20,215 nucleotides of DNA from a virus. Positions 7,141 through 19,499 of the stretch are shown piece after piece. Position numbers and translations under genes: made by a program. The notes beneath the pieces were generated by a model, which was not told the DNA's origin, ran no database searches, and saw nothing but the letters and a program-made list of their open reading frames with translations. Location of the stretch: positions 1 to 20,215 of the IMG/VR virus record IMGVR_UViG_3300028384_000087, one strand, 5' to 3'. Within the stretch, counting starts at the first letter, position 1; every line of letters starts with the position of its first letter.

Positions 7141-7581
7141 ATGGCACAAATGGCAATGGCGGGTTTTTCCGCATTTATGCAAATTAGGGCAGGGCAAGCG
7201 CAAAAAGCGATGTATAACGCGAAAGGCGCTGAAGCCATTATACAGGGCCGCGCGAAAGCCATAGAGGCAAAGCAAAAGGGCGTAGCAGTATTGCAGCGTC
7301 TAAACGAAACACTTGCCACTACAACTGCCAGGGCAACTACAGGCGGTGGCGTAGTAAGCACACTAGCGCTTGACAATTATGCTATGAAAGAAGGCACTGG
7401 CGAATATTATACCACAAAAGACAACGCTAATATAGCTGTTGGCCAAGCTCAATTCCAAGCACAGATTTATAAAACTGCCGGCAAGCAAGCGATGTTAAAT
7501 GCTTATGCAAGCGCAGCCGGCACATTAGGACAAGGACACGCTAATCAAATGCAAGCTGGTGGATATCCTTCATTCGGATGA
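7141..7581 (+). CDS. Internal virion protein, T7 gp14-like
   Basis: This small (146 aa) Ala/Gln/Gly-rich helical protein begins MAQMAMAGFSAFMQIRAGQA. The order after the nozzle gene and before two or three large internal proteins is that of T7 gp14, gp15 and gp16. T7 gp14 is ejected first and enters the outer membrane. Visible features are an N-terminal weakly hydrophobic helix, a long amphipathic helix with several K/R-rich turns, and the segment TTTARATTGGGVVS-x-A-x-DNYAMKE typical of these proteins. It is shorter than T7 gp14 (196). The assignment rests on position and style more than on a strong motif. Confidence 0.75.
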   Translation: MAQMAMAGFSAFMQIRAGQAQKAMYNAKGAEAIIQGRAKAIEAKQKGVAVLQRLNETLATTTARATTGGGVVSTLALDNYAMKEGTGEYYTTKDNANIAVGQAQFQAQIYKTAGKQAMLNAYASAAGTLGQGHANQMQAGGYPSFG

Positions 7582-7594
7582 GGTTTAAAGTATA

Positions 7595-8482
7595 ATGGCA
7601 CGCAGACCTAGATATCAAAAAGTAGGCGTTGGATTAGACGCACCAGCCCGCACAGATTTTGCCGGGCTTCGGGAGACTGCACGCGCTGCACAAAACATTT
7701 CGGCTCAAATAGACCGCATGAGCCAGTTTGTTTATAAAGAGCAAGCCAGGGCAGCTGAGCAACGCGGGCAGCAGATGGTAGCAGATATCGGTGCGCAGCC
7801 TACTTTGCAAAAGATATCAGCTGCCGGCGGCCCATCAAACATTGAACAACGCGCTGCTTATTCAACAGCAAATCGCATTGCTGCAGCTGAAATAGAAACA
7901 CAAGCGCAGCTTGATATTGATAAAATTATAGCAGATGCGGAGGTAAACGAGCTCCCATTTAGCCAAGTGCAAGCGCAACTTAAAGATATTACCGATGGCT
8001 ACCCGGCAGCGCTATCTGATTTAGACGCGCAAACAGCTGGCATTTTGCGCCAACAGCTGCAAAGGACTTCTCAAAAAGCTGAAACTTCTTACAGCATTTT
8101 TTATAACAAGGTGCAGATTAAAGCAGCCCAGGGGCGGGCGCTGCAGGGCATAGATGTACGCAGACGCAATGTTTATAAAACAGCAGCCGGCCAAGTTTAT
8201 GATGAATTTGGCGATGTAGACGTTTCTGCTAGGGATGCTTTGGTTGATATGGAGCTGCAAAGTCTTGGTCAATATATGCGTGATTTGCAGTTTGATGAAG
8301 ATGATATCAGTAAAATTTTGATAGAAACAAAAAACCAAAGTTTCACAGAAAGCACATTGTTCGATTTTAGACAATTAAATTCACTTGATGAAAAGCGTGC
8401 TTTTATTGAAGAGCAAAGAGAAAGGCTGCCAGGCATTATTGGCGAAGAAGATGCCAGGACTTTAATGAACAGGGCAAACTAA
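7595..8482 (+). CDS. Internal virion protein (T7 gp15-like), 5' part before a frameshift
   Basis: The N-terminal part gives 295 codons, of which about 292 look native. The start MARRPRYQKVGVGLDAPART and the long helical, Gln/Ala-rich regions (ARAAEQRGQQMVADIGAQP, ADAEVNELPFSQVQAQLKDI) are typical of ejected internal proteins that form the periplasmic tube in T7 (gp15, 747 aa). The frame ends in an artificial tail after DARTLMN at 8470. The natural continuation (GKLNDQQLAALDAKV) lies in the -1 frame and runs on to 9753. With one additional base the joined protein would be 719 aa, near the gp15 length. GATGAGG upstream (7577-7583) may be the ribosome binding site. Confidence 0.8.
   Translation: MARRPRYQKVGVGLDAPARTDFAGLRETARAAQNISAQIDRMSQFVYKEQARAAEQRGQQMVADIGAQPTLQKISAAGGPSNIEQRAAYSTANRIAAAEIETQAQLDIDKIIADAEVNELPFSQVQAQLKDITDGYPAALSDLDAQTAGILRQQLQRTSQKAETSYSIFYNKVQIKAAQGRALQGIDVRRRNVYKTAAGQVYDEFGDVDVSARDALVDMELQSLGQYMRDLQFDEDDISKILIETKNQSFTESTLFDFRQLNSLDEKRAFIEEQRERLPGIIGEEDARTLMNRAN
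8468..8482 (+). other. Apparent -1 frameshift site inside the gp15-like gene
   Basis: In the first frame the codons read tta atg aac agg gca aac taa. The other frame is open upstream from 8410 and carries the obvious continuation. One extra G in GGG at 8472-8474 gives ...LMNRGKLNDQQLAALDAKV without interruption. No X-XXY-YYZ slippery heptamer is aligned with the zero frame here, so an indel or sequencing error is more likely than programmed slippage. Confidence 0.75.
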
Positions 8483-8574
8483 ATGATCAACAACTTGCAG
8501 CGCTGGATGCTAAAGTTGGCGGTTTAGGCGAATATGGCGCAGAGGCAACAGAAGATTTATCCAAGCTCAAGCGC

Positions 8575-9753
8575 ATGAGCATGGCGATGCAAGGTTTCCG
8601 GCAAATGCCGCCGACACAGCTACAGGATACAATTAACACCATGCGCACCGGCATTGCGGGCATGGGTGGTGATGGTGTCGATACATTGGAAGAGGTAGAG
8701 CTGCTAGAGCAAGCCGAAACATTGCTTTCAAATATGAACACACAAATTGCTAAAGACCCTCTGTCGCACGCTATAAAGTTAGATATTGTTTCTATGCAGC
8801 CGCTGGATATGTCTTTGCTTGGCTCACAAGACGAAGGTTTGCAGATGCAAGCTAAAGAGCAAGCAAATGCCAGGATTGGTGCGGGTTTACAGGCAGCGTC
8901 TCATTTTGGTACAGAGCCTACGTTTTTGACAGATGAAGAGGCGAAGGCGATAACTAATGTGATGGACAATGGCAATGTAGGGGAGCAAATGGCACTGCTT
9001 ACTGGCCTTTACACCATATTTGGCGAACAGCACGTTTCAGACGTTTTCGCGCAAATTAGCCAAAAGTCTCCAGAGGTAGGGCATATTGCTGGTTTGATTA
9101 TGACCGGCAACCATCAAACAGCTGCAGACGCGCTGGCTGGTATGGATATTTTGCAGCAAGGATATAAGCCGCCAGAATTTACGCCTACTAACACTGACAC
9201 AGTTTACAATGAACAACTTGCGGATGCTTTTGCATTTATGCCAGACTCTATGATTGCCGGCAAAGAGATAGCCAAAGCATTATATGCTAAGCGAGCGCAA
9301 CGAGCCGGGCTAGACCAGTTTGATGAAGCCTTGTGGAACAAAAGTATAAGTGACGCTTTTGGGCAAAGCATGGGTATGGGCGGTGTTCAAGACGTTTTTG
9401 GCAACAAGCTGCTTATGCCTTCTGATGTAGGTGCAGAACAAATAGAAACAGCATTTAACAACATGACGCCAGATGATTTATACAGAGCATCTGGAGTGAA
9501 ATTAGGCGATGAGCTTTTTAAGTTTATTTTTAAACCGGCAGAAGAGGGAATAATATTTGACTCAGATGCAGAGTTTAACAGCGATGATTTTAGGATAGTG
9601 GCTACCGGCAAGGATACATATGTTATTATGATGGGTGAACCTGGCAACACATCATCGCGGATGGTTGAAGGCGCTTATGAAGATGAAATGGGTGGCGCAG
9701 AAGGTAGCAGACGCCTAGAGATTAACATCAAAAAATTGTTGAAGATGCAATGA
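8575..9753 (+). CDS. Internal virion protein (T7 gp15-like), 3' part after the frameshift
   Basis: From its first ATG this frame gives 392 residues, but the same frame is coding from about 8471 (GKLNDQQLAALDAKVGGLGE). The ATG at 8575 has no ribosome binding site and no in-frame ATG, GTG or TTG precedes it in the native part, so it is not an independent gene. The product is helical, with repeated Ala/Gln/Met-rich stretches, and ends ...RRLEINIKKLLKMQ. Segments such as GSQDEGLQMQAKEQANARIG and EEAKAITNVMDNGNVGEQMA match the style of large podoviral internal proteins. Its TGA overlaps the start of the 1097-aa gene (ATGA), so the pair is translated in series. Confidence 0.75.
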   Translation: MSMAMQGFRQMPPTQLQDTINTMRTGIAGMGGDGVDTLEEVELLEQAETLLSNMNTQIAKDPLSHAIKLDIVSMQPLDMSLLGSQDEGLQMQAKEQANARIGAGLQAASHFGTEPTFLTDEEAKAITNVMDNGNVGEQMALLTGLYTIFGEQHVSDVFAQISQKSPEVGHIAGLIMTGNHQTAADALAGMDILQQGYKPPEFTPTNTDTVYNEQLADAFAFMPDSMIAGKEIAKALYAKRAQRAGLDQFDEALWNKSISDAFGQSMGMGGVQDVFGNKLLMPSDVGAEQIETAFNNMTPDDLYRASGVKLGDELFKFIFKPAEEGIIFDSDAEFNSDDFRIVATGKDTYVIMMGEPGNTSSRMVEGAYEDEMGGAEGSRRLEINIKKLLKMQ

Positions 9754-12700
9754 GCTTTGTATTTAAAAAAGCATCAGAGTTTGATTTAGCCCAATATCGA
9801 GGCGTTGATAAGCCAGACCCAGGATTTGTGGAAAGTTTTAGGGCTGCCAAAAAAGCTGCTGAGTTGAACGATACATCTGTTAGCGAAGCAAACGCATTAG
9901 AAGAAGTGTGGGCGCCTATTATCGAAGAGATGAACAACAGAGGCTCTGGGCAAACTTTTTACAATCCGGCCACTTCCTACAGAACAGCTATATTTGACGA
10001 GAACATACAAGAAGCTAATTATTCGAAAGCTATTGGCAGTATATTTCAAGAAATAGAAACAAACGATGAGTTTGCAGATTTGCGTGGCAAGTTCGATAGA
10101 GATACATTATTTGAGCAAGCTGCACAATTAGCCCGCGATAGCCGTCAAGATTATTTAAACACAGTACAAAACATATCAACCACATCATCTACAATCGGGC
10201 AATTCGCCGGCGGCGCTGTTGGCGTAATAGATGATCCTGTACTTGTTGGTTCAATGTTATTTGGTGGCGCAAAAGGTTTGTGGCAAATGGCTTTCCAAGA
10301 GGCAGCGTTAGGCGCCGGTTCTGAGGCTATTATACAAACTAAAGTAAAGGAATGGTATGCCAGCACTGGCCAAGAGTACACGGATGAGCAATTTTGGAAC
10401 GCTGTAAAGTTTGGTGCAGCTGCCGGTTTTGCGACACCATTTGCTTTTAGAGGTGCTGGAGAAGTTATCAACGTAGGCGGCAAAGCCGTTAACTTGACCG
10501 TAGACCAGCTAAAGTCTGGGGTAGCTGCGCTGCGCTCAGCTGGCGTTAAATCAACTTCAGAAGGCCGGCTGTTGGAACAGCTGGCAGATGATGTGCAAGC
10601 TGTTGATGAAATAAACCCGCTTGCGTCAGATGTTGAGATGCGAGCACAAGCAGAGCATCAGTCGCGCGTACAGGACGCTACAGCGGCTGTAGAGCGCAAC
10701 CAGGCGCCTACTATACCAGATGTTCCTAAAGTGCCTCCCAGGGCCGCAGAATCGGCTTATGAGGCAGATAACCTAGATGGTACTATTTACCGCTTTGACC
10801 CGGATGAGCTGCAAGTAGATGCAGAGCTTTTTCAGTTTAAGTCCGGCGGTGATGAGTTTGGTGTAACTGAGCGGTTGCAAGGCATCAAAACTTGGGATGC
10901 AGTAAAAGCCGGCCAGGTAACTGTATTTGAAAAAGCTGACGGTTCTCGCTTTATTGCAGATGGCCACCAGCGTATGGGGTTGGCCAAGCGCATCAAAGCA
11001 CAAGACCCGAGCCAGGATGTGCGCTTATATGGGCACATATTACGCGAAGTAGATGGGTATACTGAAGCTGATGCAAGAGTTATTGCAGCTGTTAAAAATA
11101 TTGCTGAAGGTACAGGAACAGCATTAGACGCAGCTAAAATACTCAAGGATGCACCAGAGCGAATTGGGGAACTCCCCCCCAAGTCTCGCTTGGTGCAGCA
11201 AGCAAATGGCCTGGTAATGCTGTCAAACAAGGCATTTGGCGCAATTATCAACAATGTTGTGCCGGCTAACTATGGGGCTATAGTAGGGCGGTTAATACCT
11301 GATGATGAGGGTATGCAAGACGCAGCTATAGCTGTTTTAAACAAAACGCAACCAGCAAATGAGTTTCAAGCAGAAAGTATTGTGCGGCAAGTTATGGACG
11401 CCGGCGCTGAAACTAGGACACAAGAAAGCTTGTTCGGCGAAGAAATAATAACAGAAAGCTATTTTGCAGAACGTGCAAAAGTATTAGACCAGGCAGTTAA
11501 GCAACTAAGCAAAGACAAAGCTGCGTTTGCAAGCCTAGTACGCAATCAACAGCGCTTGGAAGCAGAAGGCAATCAGCTAGCCCAGGCGGCAAACCAAAGG
11601 AGAGCAGAAAATGACTCCCAAGCAATCGGGCTCCTCCAGGCCCTTGCCAACAGAAAAGGGGCGCTCTCAGACGCCCTCACAGCCGCAGCCAAACAAGCCA
11701 GAGAAGCGGGCAGCTACGGACGCGCTACTGACGGATTCATCGAAGCTGTCAGACGAGCAATTCAAGAAGGCGATTTCGATAGGCTCGCGGCTGGCGATGC
11801 TGGACGCATTGTCAATGATACAGCGCAAGGCAGCCCTCGCCCGGCAGAACCAGAACCAGACGTAAGCCTGTTCGATGATCCAAAAGGCCAGGCAACGCGC
11901 GAACAAGCTGACCAATTAGAAAATGACATTAACTCTGAGATTGCTGCAGAAACAGAACAAAACATATTTGTTAGAGACGAAGGCAACCCAGAGGCTTTTA
12001 TCTCGTATGAGCTTCAGCTGAAGAAAGCGCAAGGCTTTAAGTCATTAGAAGATTTGATGCAGCGCGGCGCTAAAAACCATGAAATGCTTACAAAAGCAAT
12101 AGCAGAAGCAGCGGAAACAGTAGGCGCAAAACCTAAAGCAGCGCCATTAAAAGGCGCAGCGCGGGTGCAAGAAAAGGTGCAAGATAAATACGCTGGCGAT
12201 TTGAATAGAATAGTAGACGTTGCTAGAGGCGGTATTGATGCGCCTACTCCAGCAAGCGCTAATGATTTTGTAAATGCTTTAGCGCGCAAATTTAAGGTGT
12301 TGGATGAAGGTTGGACAGTTACGCCTGAAGGTTACTTTGACAGAAAACTGTCAGTAGTGATGCCTGATGGGCAGCTGGCAGAGGTTCAAATTTGGGCTCC
12401 GGGGCTGTTAGAGGCAAAAGAAGTCCGAGGCGGCCATAAGCTGTACGAAAAATACAGAAGCAAAGAAACACCAGAGGCCGAAAGACAAAAAGCTCTGGAA
12501 GATATGAAAGCTCTATATGGCAGTGTGGCAGATGATCTGCCAGTAGAATGGCGCGAAATTATAGGCGGTCAAAAGGAATCAGGCATTGTGCCGCCTAACC
12601 GGGCAACTAAAGAAGAGATGAGCTCTATAGAAACCTCTGGAGAGCCTTCATCATTAAGGACTTCTTTAGACGATATTGGCCTCCAGGAGCCATCAGCCCC

Positions 12701-13043
12701 TAAAGATATCATTGACCCATCATCGCCTTCTATGGCGGGGATGGACTTGTCTACTAAGAAAAATCTCATTCAAGCCTCCAAAACAAATATAGATATCGCT
12801 ACAGAAGAAGTCAAGCCGCCAGCGGGATTGATGGCTTTACTGCCTGAAGATGCGCGAGCTGAGCTGTCCAAGATGTTTGATGAAGTAGACGCATACAGAA
12901 CAGAAGAGGGTAGGATACCTATAGGCAGTGAGCTTGATGAAAATGGCAATGCGATTGCTGTTACTATGACCAGGCAAGAAATGTTAGATGAATTTGAGCA
13001 AGACAGAAAAATGTTAGATAGATTAAGGGATTGCGTCAAATGA
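9750..13043 (+). CDS. Large ejected virion protein with ParB/DdrB-like and RelA/SpoT-like domains
   Basis: This 1097-residue protein sits in the T7 gp16 position and probably enters the cell with the DNA. Residues 1-140 are helical. Residues ~147-190 and ~215-240 are Gly/Ala-rich and hydrophobic and may insert in membrane. Residues ~348-475 resemble the ParB/DdrB-like domain: a strand with YRFDPDELQVD, then FIADGHQRMGLAKR (401-414). Residues ~808-905 resemble a RelA/SpoT-type nucleotidyltransferase: KYAGDLNRIVDVARGG (D823), PEGYFDRKL (861-867), AEVQIW (E878) and GHKLYEKYR (H896). The two enzyme-like domains joined by disordered linkers recall phage polyvalent proteins. Substrates are unknown. 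No lytic transglycosylase motif is seen. Part of residues 620-705 overlaps another ORF. Confidence 0.8.
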   Translation: MSFVFKKASEFDLAQYRGVDKPDPGFVESFRAAKKAAELNDTSVSEANALEEVWAPIIEEMNNRGSGQTFYNPATSYRTAIFDENIQEANYSKAIGSIFQEIETNDEFADLRGKFDRDTLFEQAAQLARDSRQDYLNTVQNISTTSSTIGQFAGGAVGVIDDPVLVGSMLFGGAKGLWQMAFQEAALGAGSEAIIQTKVKEWYASTGQEYTDEQFWNAVKFGAAAGFATPFAFRGAGEVINVGGKAVNLTVDQLKSGVAALRSAGVKSTSEGRLLEQLADDVQAVDEINPLASDVEMRAQAEHQSRVQDATAAVERNQAPTIPDVPKVPPRAAESAYEADNLDGTIYRFDPDELQVDAELFQFKSGGDEFGVTERLQGIKTWDAVKAGQVTVFEKADGSRFIADGHQRMGLAKRIKAQDPSQDVRLYGHILREVDGYTEADARVIAAVKNIAEGTGTALDAAKILKDAPERIGELPPKSRLVQQANGLVMLSNKAFGAIINNVVPANYGAIVGRLIPDDEGMQDAAIAVLNKTQPANEFQAESIVRQVMDAGAETRTQESLFGEEIITESYFAERAKVLDQAVKQLSKDKAAFASLVRNQQRLEAEGNQLAQAANQRRAENDSQAIGLLQALANRKGALSDALTAAAKQAREAGSYGRATDGFIEAVRRAIQEGDFDRLAAGDAGRIVNDTAQGSPRPAEPEPDVSLFDDPKGQATREQADQLENDINSEIAAETEQNIFVRDEGNPEAFISYELQLKKAQGFKSLEDLMQRGAKNHEMLTKAIAEAAETVGAKPKAAPLKGAARVQEKVQDKYAGDLNRIVDVARGGIDAPTPASANDFVNALARKFKVLDEGWTVTPEGYFDRKLSVVMPDGQLAEVQIWAPGLLEAKEVRGGHKLYEKYRSKETPEAERQKALEDMKALYGSVADDLPVEWREIIGGQKESGIVPPNRATKEEMSSIETSGEPSSLRTSLDDIGLQEPSAPKDIIDPSSPSMAGMDLSTKKNLIQASKTNIDIATEEVKPPAGLMALLPEDARAELSKMFDEVDAYRTEEGRIPIGSELDENGNAIAVTMTRQEMLDEFEQDRKMLDRLRDCVK
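11596..11602 (+). promoter_or_regulatory. Ribosome binding site for an embedded ORF
   Basis: AAAGGAG lies eight bases before the ATG at 11611, inside the 1097-aa gene. It is as strong as those of the capsid-side and fibre genes and serves no start in the main frame, so its presence here needs an explanation. Confidence 0.5.
11611..11865 (+). CDS. Candidate overlapping gene inside the 1097-aa gene, unknown function
   Basis: This is an 84-residue ORF in the +1 frame relative to the host gene. The product has a Pro/Ser/Lys-rich disordered first half (MTPKQSGSSRPLPTEKGRSQ onward) and a helical second half (SDEQFKKAISIGSRLAMLDA, then LSMIQRKAALARQNQNQT). It is basic, with no signal peptide or lipobox, so it is not an Rz1-type spanin. 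Support comes from the perfect SD at 11596-11602 and from a GC-rich island that coincides with the ORF: a hand count gives about 58% GC over 11641-11880, against about 40% in 11461-11520 and 11941-12000. Against it, minus-strand frames are also open in this GC-rich stretch, so openness alone proves little. I recognise no family. Confidence 0.45.
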   Translation: MTPKQSGSSRPLPTEKGRSQTPSQPQPNKPEKRAATDALLTDSSKLSDEQFKKAISIGSRLAMLDALSMIQRKAALARQNQNQT

Positions 13044-15463
13044 GCTTAGAGCAATGTATTATTAACGCCAGACAAGAAGGCACCCTAACAGACAGCCAGG
13101 CTAACGAAGCTGGAGATTTGTTCGCGCAGCTCGAAGCAGAATACGCCACCAGGATGTCACCAGGGCAAGCAGCTGCACAAGCCGGCCAGGATACTTTCGA
13201 TGCGCTGCAATTCCAGGTTATACAGCGCAAAAGAAAAAAGCTGCTGGCCTATCAAAACTGGAAGCAGATAACCCGGCAGCTGAATGAATATAAAAATTTC
13301 AAAGGCGAAGCAGACCCGGTTGCAGCTGCGATAGCGCACTTTGTTCCTGATGAACGCGCTAAATATTCAAACCTGGAAGCTAGAACACAAGCAGTAAAGA
13401 ACGCGGCAACCCGGCAGCTGTATGATGTTTTAGGTACTTTCCGTAAAAATTTAATAGGCGGCACGCGGAAAAAGGCGAAACTGAAAGATATGGTGCGTGA
13501 AGTATTTGGAGAAGATACTGGCAATGCGCACGCTAAAGAGATGGCGGCTGCCTGGTCAAAGGCGTCTGAGTATTTGCGTCAGCGGTTCAACGCTGCCGGT
13601 GGCGCGGTTGCAAAGCGCAAAGATTGGGGACTGCCGCAATTTCACGACACACTTGCTGTGCGCAAGGTAAGCTACCAAGAATGGCGCGATTTCATTGCGC
13701 CAAAGCTGAACAGGCAAAAGATGATAGATGAACAAACTGGCGCAGCTTTTACAGAAGCCCGGTTAGAGCTGGCCTTGCGTGATGTATATGAAACAATACG
13801 CACAGATGGCATGGTTAAATTAAAGCCAGGCGGTGTGGGCCGGGGCAAATCTGTAAGCAGCCGACACACTGATCATAGATTTCTGGTATTTAATTCTGCT
13901 GATGAGTGGATGAGTTACCAGCAGCGTTTCGGCAATCCAGATGCTTTTGACACAATGATGGGCCATATCTCTACTATGAGCCGCGATATCGCAATGCTCG
14001 AAATACTAGGGCCGAACCCGCAAGCAACTATGAACTTTATGAAACAAACTATAGCCAAGCGTGCTGCCGGCGATGTTAAGATGGAAGATAAAGCACGCAA
14101 AGCAGCTAAATCTATTGATGATTTGTATGGTGTTTTATCGGGGCGCAACAATAACCCTATTGACTCATTTTGGGGCAATACATTTGCCGGTCTTAGACAG
14201 CTGTTGCAGTCAGCTCAGCTAGGCGCTGCGTCTATAGCAGCTATTACAGATGTAAACTTTCAGCGCATTGCTCGCGCATCAGCCGGGCTGCCGCAAACAA
14301 AAGTGGTTTCTGACTATCTCAAGCAAATGAACCCGCTAAGTACAGAAGAAAAAGGGCGCTTAGCCATTCGGCTTGGCCTTATTGCAGAAGGTTGGATGAG
14401 TATTGCTGCAGGGCAGCAAAGGTACGTTGGCGATATATCCGGGCCAGAGATAACTCGCCGGATAGCAGACTTTACCATGAAAGCATCGTTCCTTTCCCCA
14501 ATGACCAATGCCGGGCGCTGGTCATTCGGCATGGAGTTTTACGGCACACTGGCCGATAATGTCGGAAAAACATTCGATGAGCTAGATGATGCGCTGCGCA
14601 ACACAATGGAAAAATATGGCATTGGTTCTGATGGTTGGGATATCATGCGTTCTACAGAGCCGTATGATTGGGAAGGTGCAAAGTTTCTGCGTCCAGAAGA
14701 TGTAGAGTTTCGTGGTGACATTAGCCCGCGCCTGGCCAGAGACTTGTCCACAAAAATGATGGAGATGATTGATACTGAAATGCAGTATGCGGTGCCTTCC
14801 ACAACCACTAAAGGCAGAACAGCATTAGTAGGCGAAAGCCGCCCAGGGACTGTTGCCGGGGAGCTGACGCGCTCGTTTGCTATGTATAAAGGTTTTGGTG
14901 TTAGCCTGGTAAACTTTCACTTTGCGGATTTGCTAATAAGTACAACTGTCATGGGTGCGCTTGCACTGCAGCTTAAAGAAATGAGCAAGGGGCGCGACCC
15001 TCGCCCTATGACAGATACGGAGTTTTGGTTGGCTGCTTTTCTGCAAGGTGGCGGGCTAGGCATTTATGGTGATTTCTTGTTTTCGGATGTTAATAGATTT
15101 GATAGAGGTTTAGCAGAAACGATTGCCGGGCCTGTTGTTGGCTTTGCTAACGATGCAAAAAACCTTACGATTGGCAATTTAATTGAAGCAGCAAACGGCG
15201 AAGATACAAACATAGCATCAGAGATGATAAACTTTGCTGGCCGCTATACACCAGGTTCATCATTGTGGTATATGAGGCTGGGGCTAGAGCGCCTGGTTCT
15301 TGACCAGATGAGAATGGCCACAGACAAAAAGGCTAGGCAGAAGTTTAGAAAGCTCGAAGGGCGATATCGCAGAGACACTGGGCAGAAATATTGGTGGCGC
15401 CCAGGACGGCGCGAGCCTAGTAGAGCACCAAATATTGAGAACATTCTAGCGGAGAGACAATAA
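13040..15463 (+). CDS. Second large internal/ejected virion protein (gp16 C-terminal-type)
   Basis: This 807-residue protein starts at ATG 13040, overlapping the previous TGA (ATGA), with AAGGGA at 13025-13030. An upstream in-frame TTG at 13031 is less likely. The N-terminal 150 residues are helical and basic (QRKRKKLLAYQNWKQITRQL). Residues ~619-648 contain a hydrophobic helix (LLISTTVMGALALQ), followed by FWLAAFLQGGGLGIYGDFLF and LAETIAGPVVGFANDAKNL. The end carries GRYTPGSSLWYMRLGLERLV, then YRRDTGQKYWWRPG. This C-terminal module is widespread at the end of giant phage internal proteins and of polyvalent proteins; it probably interacts with membrane. The coupled overlap suggests that this gene and the 1097-aa gene are a split version of one ejection protein. 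Confidence 0.82.
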   Translation: MSLEQCIINARQEGTLTDSQANEAGDLFAQLEAEYATRMSPGQAAAQAGQDTFDALQFQVIQRKRKKLLAYQNWKQITRQLNEYKNFKGEADPVAAAIAHFVPDERAKYSNLEARTQAVKNAATRQLYDVLGTFRKNLIGGTRKKAKLKDMVREVFGEDTGNAHAKEMAAAWSKASEYLRQRFNAAGGAVAKRKDWGLPQFHDTLAVRKVSYQEWRDFIAPKLNRQKMIDEQTGAAFTEARLELALRDVYETIRTDGMVKLKPGGVGRGKSVSSRHTDHRFLVFNSADEWMSYQQRFGNPDAFDTMMGHISTMSRDIAMLEILGPNPQATMNFMKQTIAKRAAGDVKMEDKARKAAKSIDDLYGVLSGRNNNPIDSFWGNTFAGLRQLLQSAQLGAASIAAITDVNFQRIARASAGLPQTKVVSDYLKQMNPLSTEEKGRLAIRLGLIAEGWMSIAAGQQRYVGDISGPEITRRIADFTMKASFLSPMTNAGRWSFGMEFYGTLADNVGKTFDELDDALRNTMEKYGIGSDGWDIMRSTEPYDWEGAKFLRPEDVEFRGDISPRLARDLSTKMMEMIDTEMQYAVPSTTTKGRTALVGESRPGTVAGELTRSFAMYKGFGVSLVNFHFADLLISTTVMGALALQLKEMSKGRDPRPMTDTEFWLAAFLQGGGLGIYGDFLFSDVNRFDRGLAETIAGPVVGFANDAKNLTIGNLIEAANGEDTNIASEMINFAGRYTPGSSLWYMRLGLERLVLDQMRMATDKKARQKFRKLEGRYRRDTGQKYWWRPGRREPSRAPNIENILAERQ

Positions 15464-17238: not shown

Positions 17239-17961
17239 ATGGGATATGTAGGCAATCAAACATCTAACAGCTACTCCTCTATGGATAAGCAGACCATCAC
17301 TGGTAATGGTGGTGCAAGCTATACGCTAACCCACGCTGTAGCCAACGTAAACGAGATTGAAGTATTCGTTAATAACGTCCGTCAAGAGCCTTCAGTAGCT
17401 TACACGGTAGCTGGTACTGCTTTGACCATGACAGGCGGTGCTGTTACTACTGACAAGGTTGCTAATAATGCTATTACAGCCGCTAAGATGTTTTCTTCGT
17501 TTACAAATGGTATTATTGAATTAGACCAGTTTAGACTTACTGCTAACTTTACAACAAACAATGCTACTATTACTGGTTTTGAAAGAACTGATGATGCGAC
17601 TTTTTCAAAACTTGGAACAGGAATGAGCGAAAGCTCTGGTGTGTTTACTTTTCCAAGTACGGGTCTTTGGGTTGTGATTGGAGTTATGGATTTAGCATCT
17701 ACCTCAGGAGATACCGTAGGATATGAGGCATATGCAAGTAGCGATTCTGGTTCAAATTATGACAGGATTAGTGTTGCTTATAGTGGGCATGGAAGTGGTA
17801 ACGGAAGCACTGTGGTTTTTAATGTTATTAATGTAACTAACGCTTCTAACTTTAGGTTTAAAACACATACAATCTCATTGAATAGTGGCTCTAGGGTTTC
17901 TGGTGACACAGACACTAATTACAGTAGCCTTTCGTTTATACGCATAGCGAACGCACAATAG
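17239..17961 (+). CDS. Fibre-tip protein: N-terminal adaptor plus C1q-like head
   Basis: This 240-residue protein begins with an adaptor module (MGYVGNQTSNSYSSMDKQTI, ASYTLTHAVANVNEIEVFVN, NVRQEPSVAYTVAGTALTMT) common in marine phage fibres. It continues with KVANNAITAAKM and then a C1q/TNF-like jelly roll from about residue 95: GVFTFPSTGLWVVIGVMDLA, YEAYASSDSG, STVVFNVINVTNASNFRFKT, ending YSSLSFIRIANAQ. The final (S/T)xFxxI-A strand is characteristic. The adaptor appears shortened after LTMTG, where the strand usually seen in this module is missing. A weak AGGTGAAG (17230-17237) precedes the ATG. It is probably a receptor-binding or chaperone-like trimeric tip. Confidence 0.72.
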   Translation: MGYVGNQTSNSYSSMDKQTITGNGGASYTLTHAVANVNEIEVFVNNVRQEPSVAYTVAGTALTMTGGAVTTDKVANNAITAAKMFSSFTNGIIELDQFRLTANFTTNNATITGFERTDDATFSKLGTGMSESSGVFTFPSTGLWVVIGVMDLASTSGDTVGYEAYASSDSGSNYDRISVAYSGHGSGNGSTVVFNVINVTNASNFRFKTHTISLNSGSRVSGDTDTNYSSLSFIRIANAQ

Positions 17962-19059: not shown

Positions 19060-19239
19060 ATGGATAACATGACAATTACAAACGCACAGTATTATAACTA
19101 CCCTGATGGAACACAGGCTGGCGTAAATGCCACCATTGACGGCACAGAGATGTCAGTACCCCTAGACACAGCCAACCGCCACTATGCTGCTATCCTAGAA
19201 TGGGTAGCTGACGGCAACACAATACAGGATGCAGACTAA
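19060..19239 (+). CDS. Small fibre-cassette protein, conserved in marine phages
   Basis: A 59-residue ORF starts two bases after the previous stop, with GGAG at 19048-19051. It reads MDNMTITNAQYYNYPDGTQA, then GVNATIDGTEMSVPLDTANR and HYAAILEWVADGNTIQDAD. The pattern of a short strand, I-D-G-x-x-x-(S/F)-VP-x-D-x-x-N-R-x-Y and W-x-x-x-G-N-x-I-x-x-A-D is recurrent in small proteins beside phage fibre genes and probably marks an assembly or adaptor peptide. It is acidic, with no signal peptide. The stop overlaps the next ATG (TAATG). Confidence 0.7.
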   Translation: MDNMTITNAQYYNYPDGTQAGVNATIDGTEMSVPLDTANRHYAAILEWVADGNTIQDAD

Positions 19240-19499
19240 TGCCTTATATTGGGGTCGCTCCCTCAAGCGGATTATTTAAGAAGCTAGATGCAATCACTGT
19301 GGTCAATGCACAAGCGGCATACACCATGCAGTACAACAGCAGTAACTTCAAACCCGCTACTGCTGAACAGCTTATTGTATCTGTGAACGGTGTTATCCAA
19401 GCACCTAACGATGCTTACACAGTGTCTGGCTCAACAATCACATTCAGCGAGAACTTGGTTACTGGTGATGTGATTGACGTATTGCTAAAGATGCAATGA
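19239..19499 (+). CDS. Small beta-domain fibre-cassette protein
   Basis: An 86-residue protein starts in a TAATG overlap. MPYIGVAPSSGLFKKLDAIT resembles the start of fibre adaptor modules (M-x-YIG), and QLIVSVNGVIQAPNDAYTVS, then GSTITFSENLVTGDVIDVLL forms the beta module also present near the start of the 240-aa fibre-tip protein (EVFVNNVRQEPSVAYTV). Here the module is complete and stands alone, including the last strand. It is probably a connector or cap of the fibre complex. The TGA overlaps the next short ORF (ATGA). Confidence 0.7.
   Translation: MPYIGVAPSSGLFKKLDAITVVNAQAAYTMQYNSSNFKPATAEQLIVSVNGVIQAPNDAYTVSGSTITFSENLVTGDVIDVLLKMQ

What the first reader, a model, noticed from the sequence alone, without database searches (positions are those of the whole stretch)
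9750..13043. Ejected virion protein carrying ParB/DdrB-like and RelA/SpoT-like domains
Seen: residues 401-414 (FIADGHQRMGLAKR) have a ParB-type core, and residues 808-905 keep the order expected of a RelA/SpoT-fold nucleotidyltransferase: Y-x-GD, D823, GY (861-862), E878-V-Q and GHKLYE. Known: polyvalent phage proteins combine such enzyme domains and are delivered with DNA. Inference: this protein sits in the T7 gp16 slot, so the phage may inject an alarmone-like synthetase or RNA/nucleotide-modifying enzyme and a nuclease or NTPase at the first moment of infection. That would be a pre-replicative host take-over or anti-defence device built into the DNA conduit.
Basis: partly seen in the sequence, partly recalled or inferred. 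Interest (0 to 1): 0.8.

Follow-up and report, generated by a model that had tools for sequence, protein, structure and literature searches.

The report
Swappable enzyme slot in ejection protein
A short-tailed marine-type phage carries, in a protein predicted to be fired into the host with its DNA, an alarmone-making enzyme of the kind used as bacterial toxins, and close relatives swap it at the same spot for a cell-wall-poisoning kinase or for nothing.

Summary
The 1097-aa protein (9750-13043) has a RelA/SpoT-fold synthetase at residues 743-938. AlphaFold gives pLDDT 94; the nearest structure is the (p)ppApp-synthetase toxin Tas1/Apk1 (Z 15.9; profile E 1e-24). D823 and E878 are invariant wherever aligned among 79 relatives. 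Residues 340-552 have a ParB/Noc-like fold (nucleotide-binding plus helix-turn-helix), but no detectable link to the DdrB-ParB family.

The 'T7 gp16 slot' is really the epsilon15 gp16 / phiVC8 p18 slot: the N-terminal third is homologous to phiVC8 p18.

The main new result is that the synthetase sits in an exchangeable internal cassette. Relatives up to 97% identical in the ParB core carry at the same site a zeta-toxin kinase, and others carry nothing (core-scan sample: synthetase 21, zeta 12, empty 13; at least 14 changes on the core tree). One pair differs by a clean 846-bp in-frame insertion. A C-terminal tail with a near-terminal Cys is kept in 87 of 88 proteins. No immunity gene was seen.

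Most likely this is an ejected protein delivering a host-poisoning enzyme at time zero. Injection, product and purpose are inferred. RelA/SpoT, ParB and zeta domains in phage polyvalent proteins are known; the swappable slot appears new.

The parts
9750..13043 (+). 1097-aa multidomain protein P0001: predicted ejection protein in the epsilon15 gp16 / phiVC8 p18 slot
   Evidence: Intact ORF; neighbours and synteny
9750..10766 (+). N-terminal ejection-protein part (residues 1-339), Gly/Ala-rich amphipathic stretches
   Evidence: Profile of 42 homologues matches phiVC8 p18: hhalign prob 97%, E 3.4e-11; hmmsearch E 1.9e-11 at Z=1e6
10767..11405 (+). ParB/Noc-like module: nucleotide-binding fold with DGHQR motif (about residues 343-444) plus HTH (about 438-552)
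   Evidence: AF2 pLDDT 82; Foldseek Noc/ParB/Spo0J E 4.8e-5; VIA Z 8.8-8.1; D404-R408 motif invariant in 52 homologues
11406..11819 (+). beta-hairpin and helical region completing the conserved core (residues 553-690)
   Evidence: AF2 secondary structure; conserved in 52 homologues
11871..11927 (+). 5' anchor of the cassette slot (FDDPKGQATREQADQLEND, residues 708-726)
   Evidence: Retained beside Rel, zeta and empty slots in close relatives
11923..12914 (+). Exchangeable cassette (992 bp); replaced by an unrelated 1127-bp zeta-kinase cassette in L002
   Evidence: blastn junctions 11922|12915 with 92% and 89% identical flanks
11976..12563 (+). RelA/SpoT-fold (Tas1/Apk1-type) nucleotide pyrophosphokinase domain, residues 743-938; K801, K809, D823, R826, Y862, E878, Q880
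12876..13040 (+). Conserved C-terminal tail with near-terminal Cys (C1095), kept whatever the cargo
   Evidence: Cys in last 4 residues in 87 of 88 proteins; tail alignment
7595..9753 (+). Epsilon15-gp15-like (phrog_992) structural gene upstream; split by a 100-bp deletion/frameshift in this contig
13031..15463 (+). Epsilon15-gp17/phiV10p20-like virion structural protein (phrog_684) downstream, overlapping P0001's end: no room for an immunity gene
7141..7581 (+). internal virion protein (phrog_418, weak)
   Evidence: E 1.1e-4

Best explanation
P0001 is an ejection (internal virion) protein of an epsilon15-like podovirus. Its N-terminal part and C-terminal Cys tail are the ejection/packaging frame. 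A ParB/Noc-like module with nucleotide-binding and HTH parts probably holds phage or host DNA. Between core and tail lies a cargo slot, here holding a Tas1/Apk1-type pyrophosphokinase. On infection a few copies would enter the host with the DNA and transfer pyrophosphate from ATP to a nucleotide, most likely making (p)ppApp and/or (p)ppGpp. That would slow host transcription, translation and replication, and drain ATP, before any phage gene is expressed. Relatives use the same slot for a zeta-type kinase, which would block peptidoglycan precursors, or leave it empty; so the slot behaves like a polymorphic-toxin cargo bay that must stay internal to keep the C-terminal tail. Shown: domains, catalytic residues, cassette exchange, synteny. 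Inferred: packaging, injection, product, effect.
For: Rel fold. Catalytic residues invariant in 79 relatives and matching those listed for SaEAS/Apk1 (D121, R124/R330, E182/E382, Q184). Purifying selection, dN/dS 0.07-0.26. ParB/Noc fold. Ejection slot: N-terminal homology to phiVC8 p18 and shared gene order. Other carriers of the same Rel domain include proteins matching 'internal virion protein' PHROGs and ddrB-ParB/phage lysozyme Pfams. Cassette exchange: zeta Pfam PF06414 at 67 bits, cut-off 22.3, in the same slot; 992 vs 1127 bp swap; clean 846-bp in-frame insertion L048 vs L051; at least 14 state changes on the core tree, window sister to a zeta carrier with support 100/96; tail Cys kept in 87/88. 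Copy number and rate: P22 injects about 12 copies each of gp7 and gp16 (PMC8402733 abstract); Apk1-type kcat about 1e5 per min (PMC12691689), so a dozen copies could turn over about 1e6 ATP per minute (inference).
Against: No virion proteomics or activity for any member. The ATP-site Asn of Apk1/SaEAS (N370/N169) is Lys in this family (GYxDxK, K866), and Q880 is lost in 7 of 68 core-bearing proteins, so substrate or chemistry could differ. A potent ATP-draining toxin at time zero could hurt the phage too. Many relatives do without any cargo, so it is not essential to ejection.
Confidence: 0.62

Rival explanations
1. The Rel domain is a tRNA 3'-CCA pyrophosphokinase (as in FaRel2 or CapRel) rather than an alarmone synthetase, and shuts off host translation by blocking tRNA charging.
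For: Same fold; CapRel aligns at Z 12.3 and FaRel/FaRel2 complexes (8PU1, 8PU3) at about Z 7.5.
Against: Sequence profile finds Tas1 (E 1e-24) and SaEAS, while no CapRel/FaRel sequence appeared up to E 10; structure ranks Tas1, SaEAS and SAS enzymes above CapRel.
Confidence: 0.13
2. The cassette acts against rival phages, host defence or superinfection (for example by altering nucleotide signals) rather than as a general host-poisoning toxin.
For: Patchy, rapidly exchanged cargo is typical of arms races; Iyer et al. 2017 suggest interference with host nucleotide signals as one role.
Against: Zeta kinase as the alternative cargo has no obvious role in nucleotide signalling; no specific defence target is known.
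Confidence: 0.15
3. The cargo domains are catalytically dead structural or DNA-condensing add-ons in the capsid.
For: Empty-slot relatives show that the frame works without them; fold alone shows no function.
Against: All catalytic residues invariant and strong purifying selection; two unrelated enzyme families, both known toxins, alternate in the slot.
Confidence: 0.06
4. The protein is a virion or late protein that is not ejected; its enzymes act late in the producing cell or stay in the capsid.
For: No direct evidence of ejection; the ParB module could serve packaging.
Against: Slot homologous to phiVC8 p18 and syntenic with epsilon15 gp16 in the ejection-gene block; an active toxin made late without immunity gene would hit the phage's own factory unless held inactive.
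Confidence: 0.12

Closest known systems
Phage polyvalent proteins with RelA/SpoT, DdrB-ParB or zeta-like domains (Iyer et al. 2017, PMC5512222)
   Same: Large phage proteins in the virion-gene block joining unrelated enzyme domains, including RelA/SpoT and ParB; zeta-like kinases reported in conjugative elements and MuF proteins
   Different: No metallopeptidase found; ParB core not detectably DdrB-type; carrier is a podovirus ejection protein; Rel, zeta and nothing alternate at one fixed internal site. [quoted passage not shown]
MuF polymorphic toxin Apk2 (PMC12226406)
   Same: Phage head-associated protein with a (p)ppApp synthetase domain of the same superfamily; variable toxin part on a constant frame
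   Different: Apk2 has a MuF N-terminus, the toxin at the C-terminus, temperate prophages and adjacent immunity genes (iapK, aph1); here cargo is internal, the next gene overlaps and no HD_4 hydrolase was found
Tas1/Apk1 (6OX6) and exported alarmone synthetases SaEAS/VpEAS/AaEAS (PMC12691689)
   Same: Closest fold and sequence profile; D, R, E, Q active-site residues
   Different: Delivered by T6SS, Sec or T7SS; GYSGVN motif in Tas1 is GYxDxK here; the five export domains listed there do not include ParB/podovirus ejection proteins
phiVC8 p18 / epsilon15 gp16 / phiV10 p19
   Same: Same gene position; N-terminal homology shown for phiVC8 p18; all end with a near-terminal Cys
   Different: 390, 634 and 600 aa; no detectable ParB core and no Rel/zeta cargo identified; homology to epsilon15 gp16 not significant
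Zeta/PezT toxins (PF06414)
   Same: Alternative cargo in the same slot, Walker A and other zeta motifs, far above the Pfam cut-off
   Different: Not in the window itself; epsilon antitoxin not looked for in detail

Membership tests
RelA/SpoT-fold nucleotide pyrophosphokinase superfamily | Synthetase fold | tested here: met
   AF2 pLDDT 94.4; Foldseek top hits all SAS/Rel; VIA Z 15.9
RelA/SpoT-fold nucleotide pyrophosphokinase superfamily | Catalytic Asp and Glu, G-loop lysines, GY and ExQ motifs | tested here: met
   K801 and K809 79/79; D823, R826, E878 in all 78 with a residue there; Y862 in all 77; Q880 in 71 of 78
Pfam RelA_SpoT PF04607 | Gathering score | tested here: not met
   Window domain no hit; 4 of 26 homologues hit at best E 0.0014; superfamily membership rests on profile and fold evidence instead
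Tas1/Apk1-type exported or toxic alarmone synthetases | Closest homology to Apk1/SaEAS rather than housekeeping RelA | tested here: met
   E 1.1e-24 Tas1, 5e-5 SaEAS, 0.13 RelA
Tas1/Apk1-type exported or toxic alarmone synthetases | All five ATP-site residues listed for SaEAS/Apk1 (R, E, Q, N, K) | tested here: inconclusive
   R826, E878, Q880 match; N370 position is K866; K353 position ambiguous
Tas1/Apk1-type exported or toxic alarmone synthetases | (p)ppApp or (p)ppGpp synthesis | not testable with these tools
   needs enzyme assay
ParB/Noc superfamily | Nucleotide-binding fold plus HTH | tested here: met
   Foldseek E 4.8e-5, only ParB-family chains at top; VIA Z 8.8-8.1 with large rmsd for the two-domain span
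DdrB-ParB (PF18763) | Pfam/profile similarity to DdrB-type ParB nuclease | tested here: not met
   No hit for the window core and none among the 25 families listed for 52 members; hhalign prob under 1% against two PF18763 domains
Podovirus ejection protein (epsilon15 gp16/phiVC8 p18 class) | Position between gp15-like and gp17-like genes and N-terminal homology | tested here: met
Podovirus ejection protein (epsilon15 gp16/phiVC8 p18 class) | Present in virion and ejected | not testable with these tools
   no proteomics for any homologue found
Polymorphic toxin | Constant frame with exchangeable toxin part | tested here: met
   Rel, zeta, empty at one site; 14 changes on tree
Polymorphic toxin | Toxin at the C-terminus with cognate immunity gene | tested here: not met
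   Cargo is internal, tail conserved; next gene overlaps; no HD_4 hydrolase in 14 records, which may be fragments

The most novel reading that the evidence does not exclude
Podoviruses have a dedicated cargo bay inside an ejection protein, between a ParB/Noc-like DNA module and a mandatory C-terminal tail, into which unrelated host-poisoning enzymes (a GYxDxK subfamily of alarmone synthetase, or a zeta-type kinase) are exchanged cleanly in frame, so that a phage without immunity genes delivers a polymorphic toxin with its DNA.
Probability: 0.55. Interest if true: 0.75.

Novelty: new variant of a known kind. Interest (0 to 1): 0.62.

Why it matters
It would show that DNA-ejection proteins of short-tailed phages are delivery vehicles with an exchangeable payload, linking podovirus ejectosomes to polymorphic toxins. 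It makes the question 'what do ejected proteins do in the cytoplasm besides forming the conduit?' directly testable, because natural filled/empty/alternative-cargo pairs differ at one site in otherwise nearly identical phages. It also adds a large environmental group to the Apk1-like alarmone synthetases, with a delivery route not on the published list.

Tried and rejected
Pfam on the whole protein found nothing meaningful, and NCBIfam and PADLOC gave nothing for P0001. Phages in the GenBank collection carry the core in only 21 records and no close Rel domain except a weak hit in Bordetella phage PHB04, so IMG/VR contigs were used. Genome contigs gave only two MAG hits: one carries the same core protein and is probably a misbinned phage contig; the other lacks the core, so no host is assigned. 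'T7 gp16 homologue' rejected in favour of epsilon15/phiVC8 synteny. Homology of the C-terminal tail to the epsilon15 gp16 tail looks suggestive by eye (terminal Cys) but is not significant. DdrB-ParB membership rejected. A FaRel/CapRel-like identity is less likely than Tas1-like. A regex for the 5' anchor was met in only 41 of 88 proteins, so the anchor sequence varies beyond close relatives. Junction microhomology at L048/L051: none. The first tree run left the window out by a scripting slip and was repeated.

Full report
WHAT WAS CLAIMED AND WHETHER IT IS THERE. The ORF is intact, 1097 aa, and the motifs are at the stated residues. Pfam finds nothing meaningful, so the claim needed profile and fold tests.

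REL DOMAIN. phmmer of the window segment against PDB sequences hit Tas1 (6OX6) at E 8.7e-5. A profile from 26 homologous segments raised this to 1.1e-24, with SaSAS/SaEAS (8VX3) at 5e-5 and RelA at 0.13. The AlphaFold2 model of residues 743-938 has mean pLDDT 94.4. Foldseek's 48 matches at E up to 0.001 are alarmone synthetases and Rel enzymes. VIA-align gives Tas1 Z 15.9 (rmsd 3.0, 164 aligned), SaEAS 14.9, RelP 14.6, CapRel 12.3 and FaRel about 7.5. In 79 distinct relatives K801 and K809 are always present; D823, R826, D864 and E878 are present in every sequence that has a residue there; Y862, K866 and Y899 are near-invariant; Q880 is present in 71. The SaEAS paper lists D121 (mutated to inactivate), R124/R330, E182/E382 and Q184 as active-site residues of SaEAS/Apk1 (PMC12691689); by my reading of the alignments D823, R826, E878 and Q880 occupy these places, with the same D-to-R and E-to-Q spacing. 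The Asn of that list (N370 in Apk1) is Lys here (GYxDxK), a family signature of unknown meaning. dN/dS in the domain is 0.07-0.26.

PARB MODULE. The conserved core (340-690, 52 homologues) folds with pLDDT 82. Foldseek returns Noc, ParB and Spo0J first (E 4.8e-5). VIA gives Z 8.8-8.1 over the nucleotide-binding part and the helix-turn-helix, with large rmsd when both are spanned. The DGHQR motif is invariant. The Pfam DdrB-ParB family is not hit by the window core and does not appear among the families listed for its homologues, and hhalign against two genuine PF18763 domains gives probability under 1%. So it is ParB/Noc-like, not demonstrably DdrB; whether it cuts DNA, clamps it or hydrolyses a nucleotide is open.

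WHERE IT SITS. The block is portal, (scaffold), capsid, tail tube A and B, small internal virion protein, gp15-like, P0001, phrog_684 protein, fibres. The downstream neighbour matches virion structural proteins of phiV10, epsilon15, VP5 and phiVC8 across 80% or more of its length, and the upstream one matches phiVC8 p17. The gene between them in phiVC8 (p18, 390 aa), epsilon15 (gp16) and phiV10 (p19) occupies P0001's place. A profile of the first 340 residues matches phiVC8 p18 (hhalign prob 97%, E 3.4e-11; hmmsearch 1.9e-11), while the ParB core is not detectable there. Thus the protein looks like a phiVC8-p18-type ejection protein enlarged by a ParB module and a cargo. Ejection proteins of this position are packaged with the DNA in podoviruses (PMC8954989); for this family packaging is inferred.

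THE EXCHANGEABLE SLOT. Relatives come from one protein scan, one core scan and two Rel-domain scans of IMG/VR. Aligning the first ones showed that L002, 96% identical in the core, has an unrelated P-loop domain where P0001 has Rel. Pfam calls it Zeta_toxin at 67 bits, cut-off 22.3. Others have only a short tail. In the core-scan sample the counts are Rel 21, zeta 12, empty 13; numbers including the Rel scans are biased towards Rel. On a tree of 82 cores the states need at least 14 changes, zeta alone 5 and empty 8, and the window's sister is the zeta carrier L002 with support 100/96. At DNA level window and L002 are 92% and 89% identical up to sharp breaks, 992 bp against 1127 bp. L048 and L051 are 92-93% identical over the structural block except for a clean 846-bp in-frame Rel cassette, without microhomology at the junction; gain and loss cannot be told apart. 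The C-terminal tail ending in a Cys within four residues of the end is kept in 87 of 88 proteins of all three states. Three large proteins have Rel before the core instead, and further Rel domains sit on proteins with ddrB-ParB, phage lysozyme or 'internal virion protein' matches.

MECHANISM. Most likely the cargo is delivered with the DNA and poisons or reprograms the host at once. Two unrelated enzyme families that both serve elsewhere as antibacterial toxins alternate in one slot of an ejection protein, with active sites intact. Low copy number need not matter: P22 injects about 12 copies each of two of its ejection proteins (PMC8402733 abstract) and Apk1-type enzymes turn over about 100,000 per minute (PMC12691689), i.e. 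about a million ATP per minute per infected cell, by my estimate of the order of a small cell's ATP pool. No immunity gene can lie directly downstream because the next gene overlaps, and no HD_4 hydrolase was found in 14 records, which may be fragments. The acceptor nucleotide cannot be predicted: this superfamily includes (p)ppApp, (p)ppGpp and tRNA enzymes.

KNOWN VERSUS NEW. Iyer et al. 2017 (PMC5512222) described phage polyvalent proteins with RelA/SpoT and DdrB-ParB domains, and zeta-like kinases in conjugative elements and MuF proteins, and proposed alarmone-mediated host shut-off. Apk2 MuF toxins are experimentally shown (p)ppApp synthetases of temperate phages (PMC12226406). A 2025 survey of Apk1 homologues lists five export-associated domains, none a podovirus ejection protein. 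New here, as far as the searched open-access literature shows: this carrier, the internal cassette with natural filled/empty/alternative pairs, the GYxDxK subfamily, and its breadth in environmental phages.

LIMITS. All evidence is computational. The window is a 20-kb metagenomic contig with two apparent internal deletions in neighbouring genes; P0001 itself is intact and agrees with its relatives. Host is unknown. The active-site distance was not measured directly.

Noticed in passing
window 4139/4140 and 8472/8473: Relative to both L001 and L002 the contig lacks about 179 bp inside the major capsid gene (217 instead of 277 aa) and 100 bp inside the gp15-like gene (frameshift splitting it into 7595-8482 and 8575-9753). 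Misassembly or a defective genome.
   Followed up: partly
L002:10861-11317 versus window 10610-10664: A second in-frame length-variable site lies between the N-terminal part and the ParB core (about 400 bp extra in L002; a similar extension in L014).
   Followed up: no
L047, L053, L057, L035, L077, L079, L112 (between core and Rel): An extra segment of roughly 100-180 aa precedes the Rel domain; in L047 it holds LDGNSTYAIASEAG, resembling a second small ParB-like motif.
   Followed up: no
L118:6021-14726, L133:5898-10298, L144:6006-13448: In these large proteins (up to about 2900 aa, L118 with an 'internal virion protein' PHROG match) the Rel domain precedes the ParB core, i.e. domain order is shuffled.
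   Followed up: partly
L136:5754-9470, L147:5310-8990, L138:6489-8534, L145:6630-8534: The same Rel domain occurs on proteins without this core: with Pfam ddrB-ParB and phage lysozyme (L136, L147) or a cysteine-dioxygenase-like domain (L138, L145).
   Followed up: partly
window 17239-17961 and 19239-19499: Both ORFs match the start of the same tail-fibre family (phrog_18673), the first one weakly, suggesting fragmented or duplicated fibre-tip genes.
   Followed up: no
window residue K866 (12345-12347): The phage Rel family has an essentially invariant GYxDxK motif where Tas1 has GYSGVN; this could mark a new substrate specificity.
   Followed up: partly
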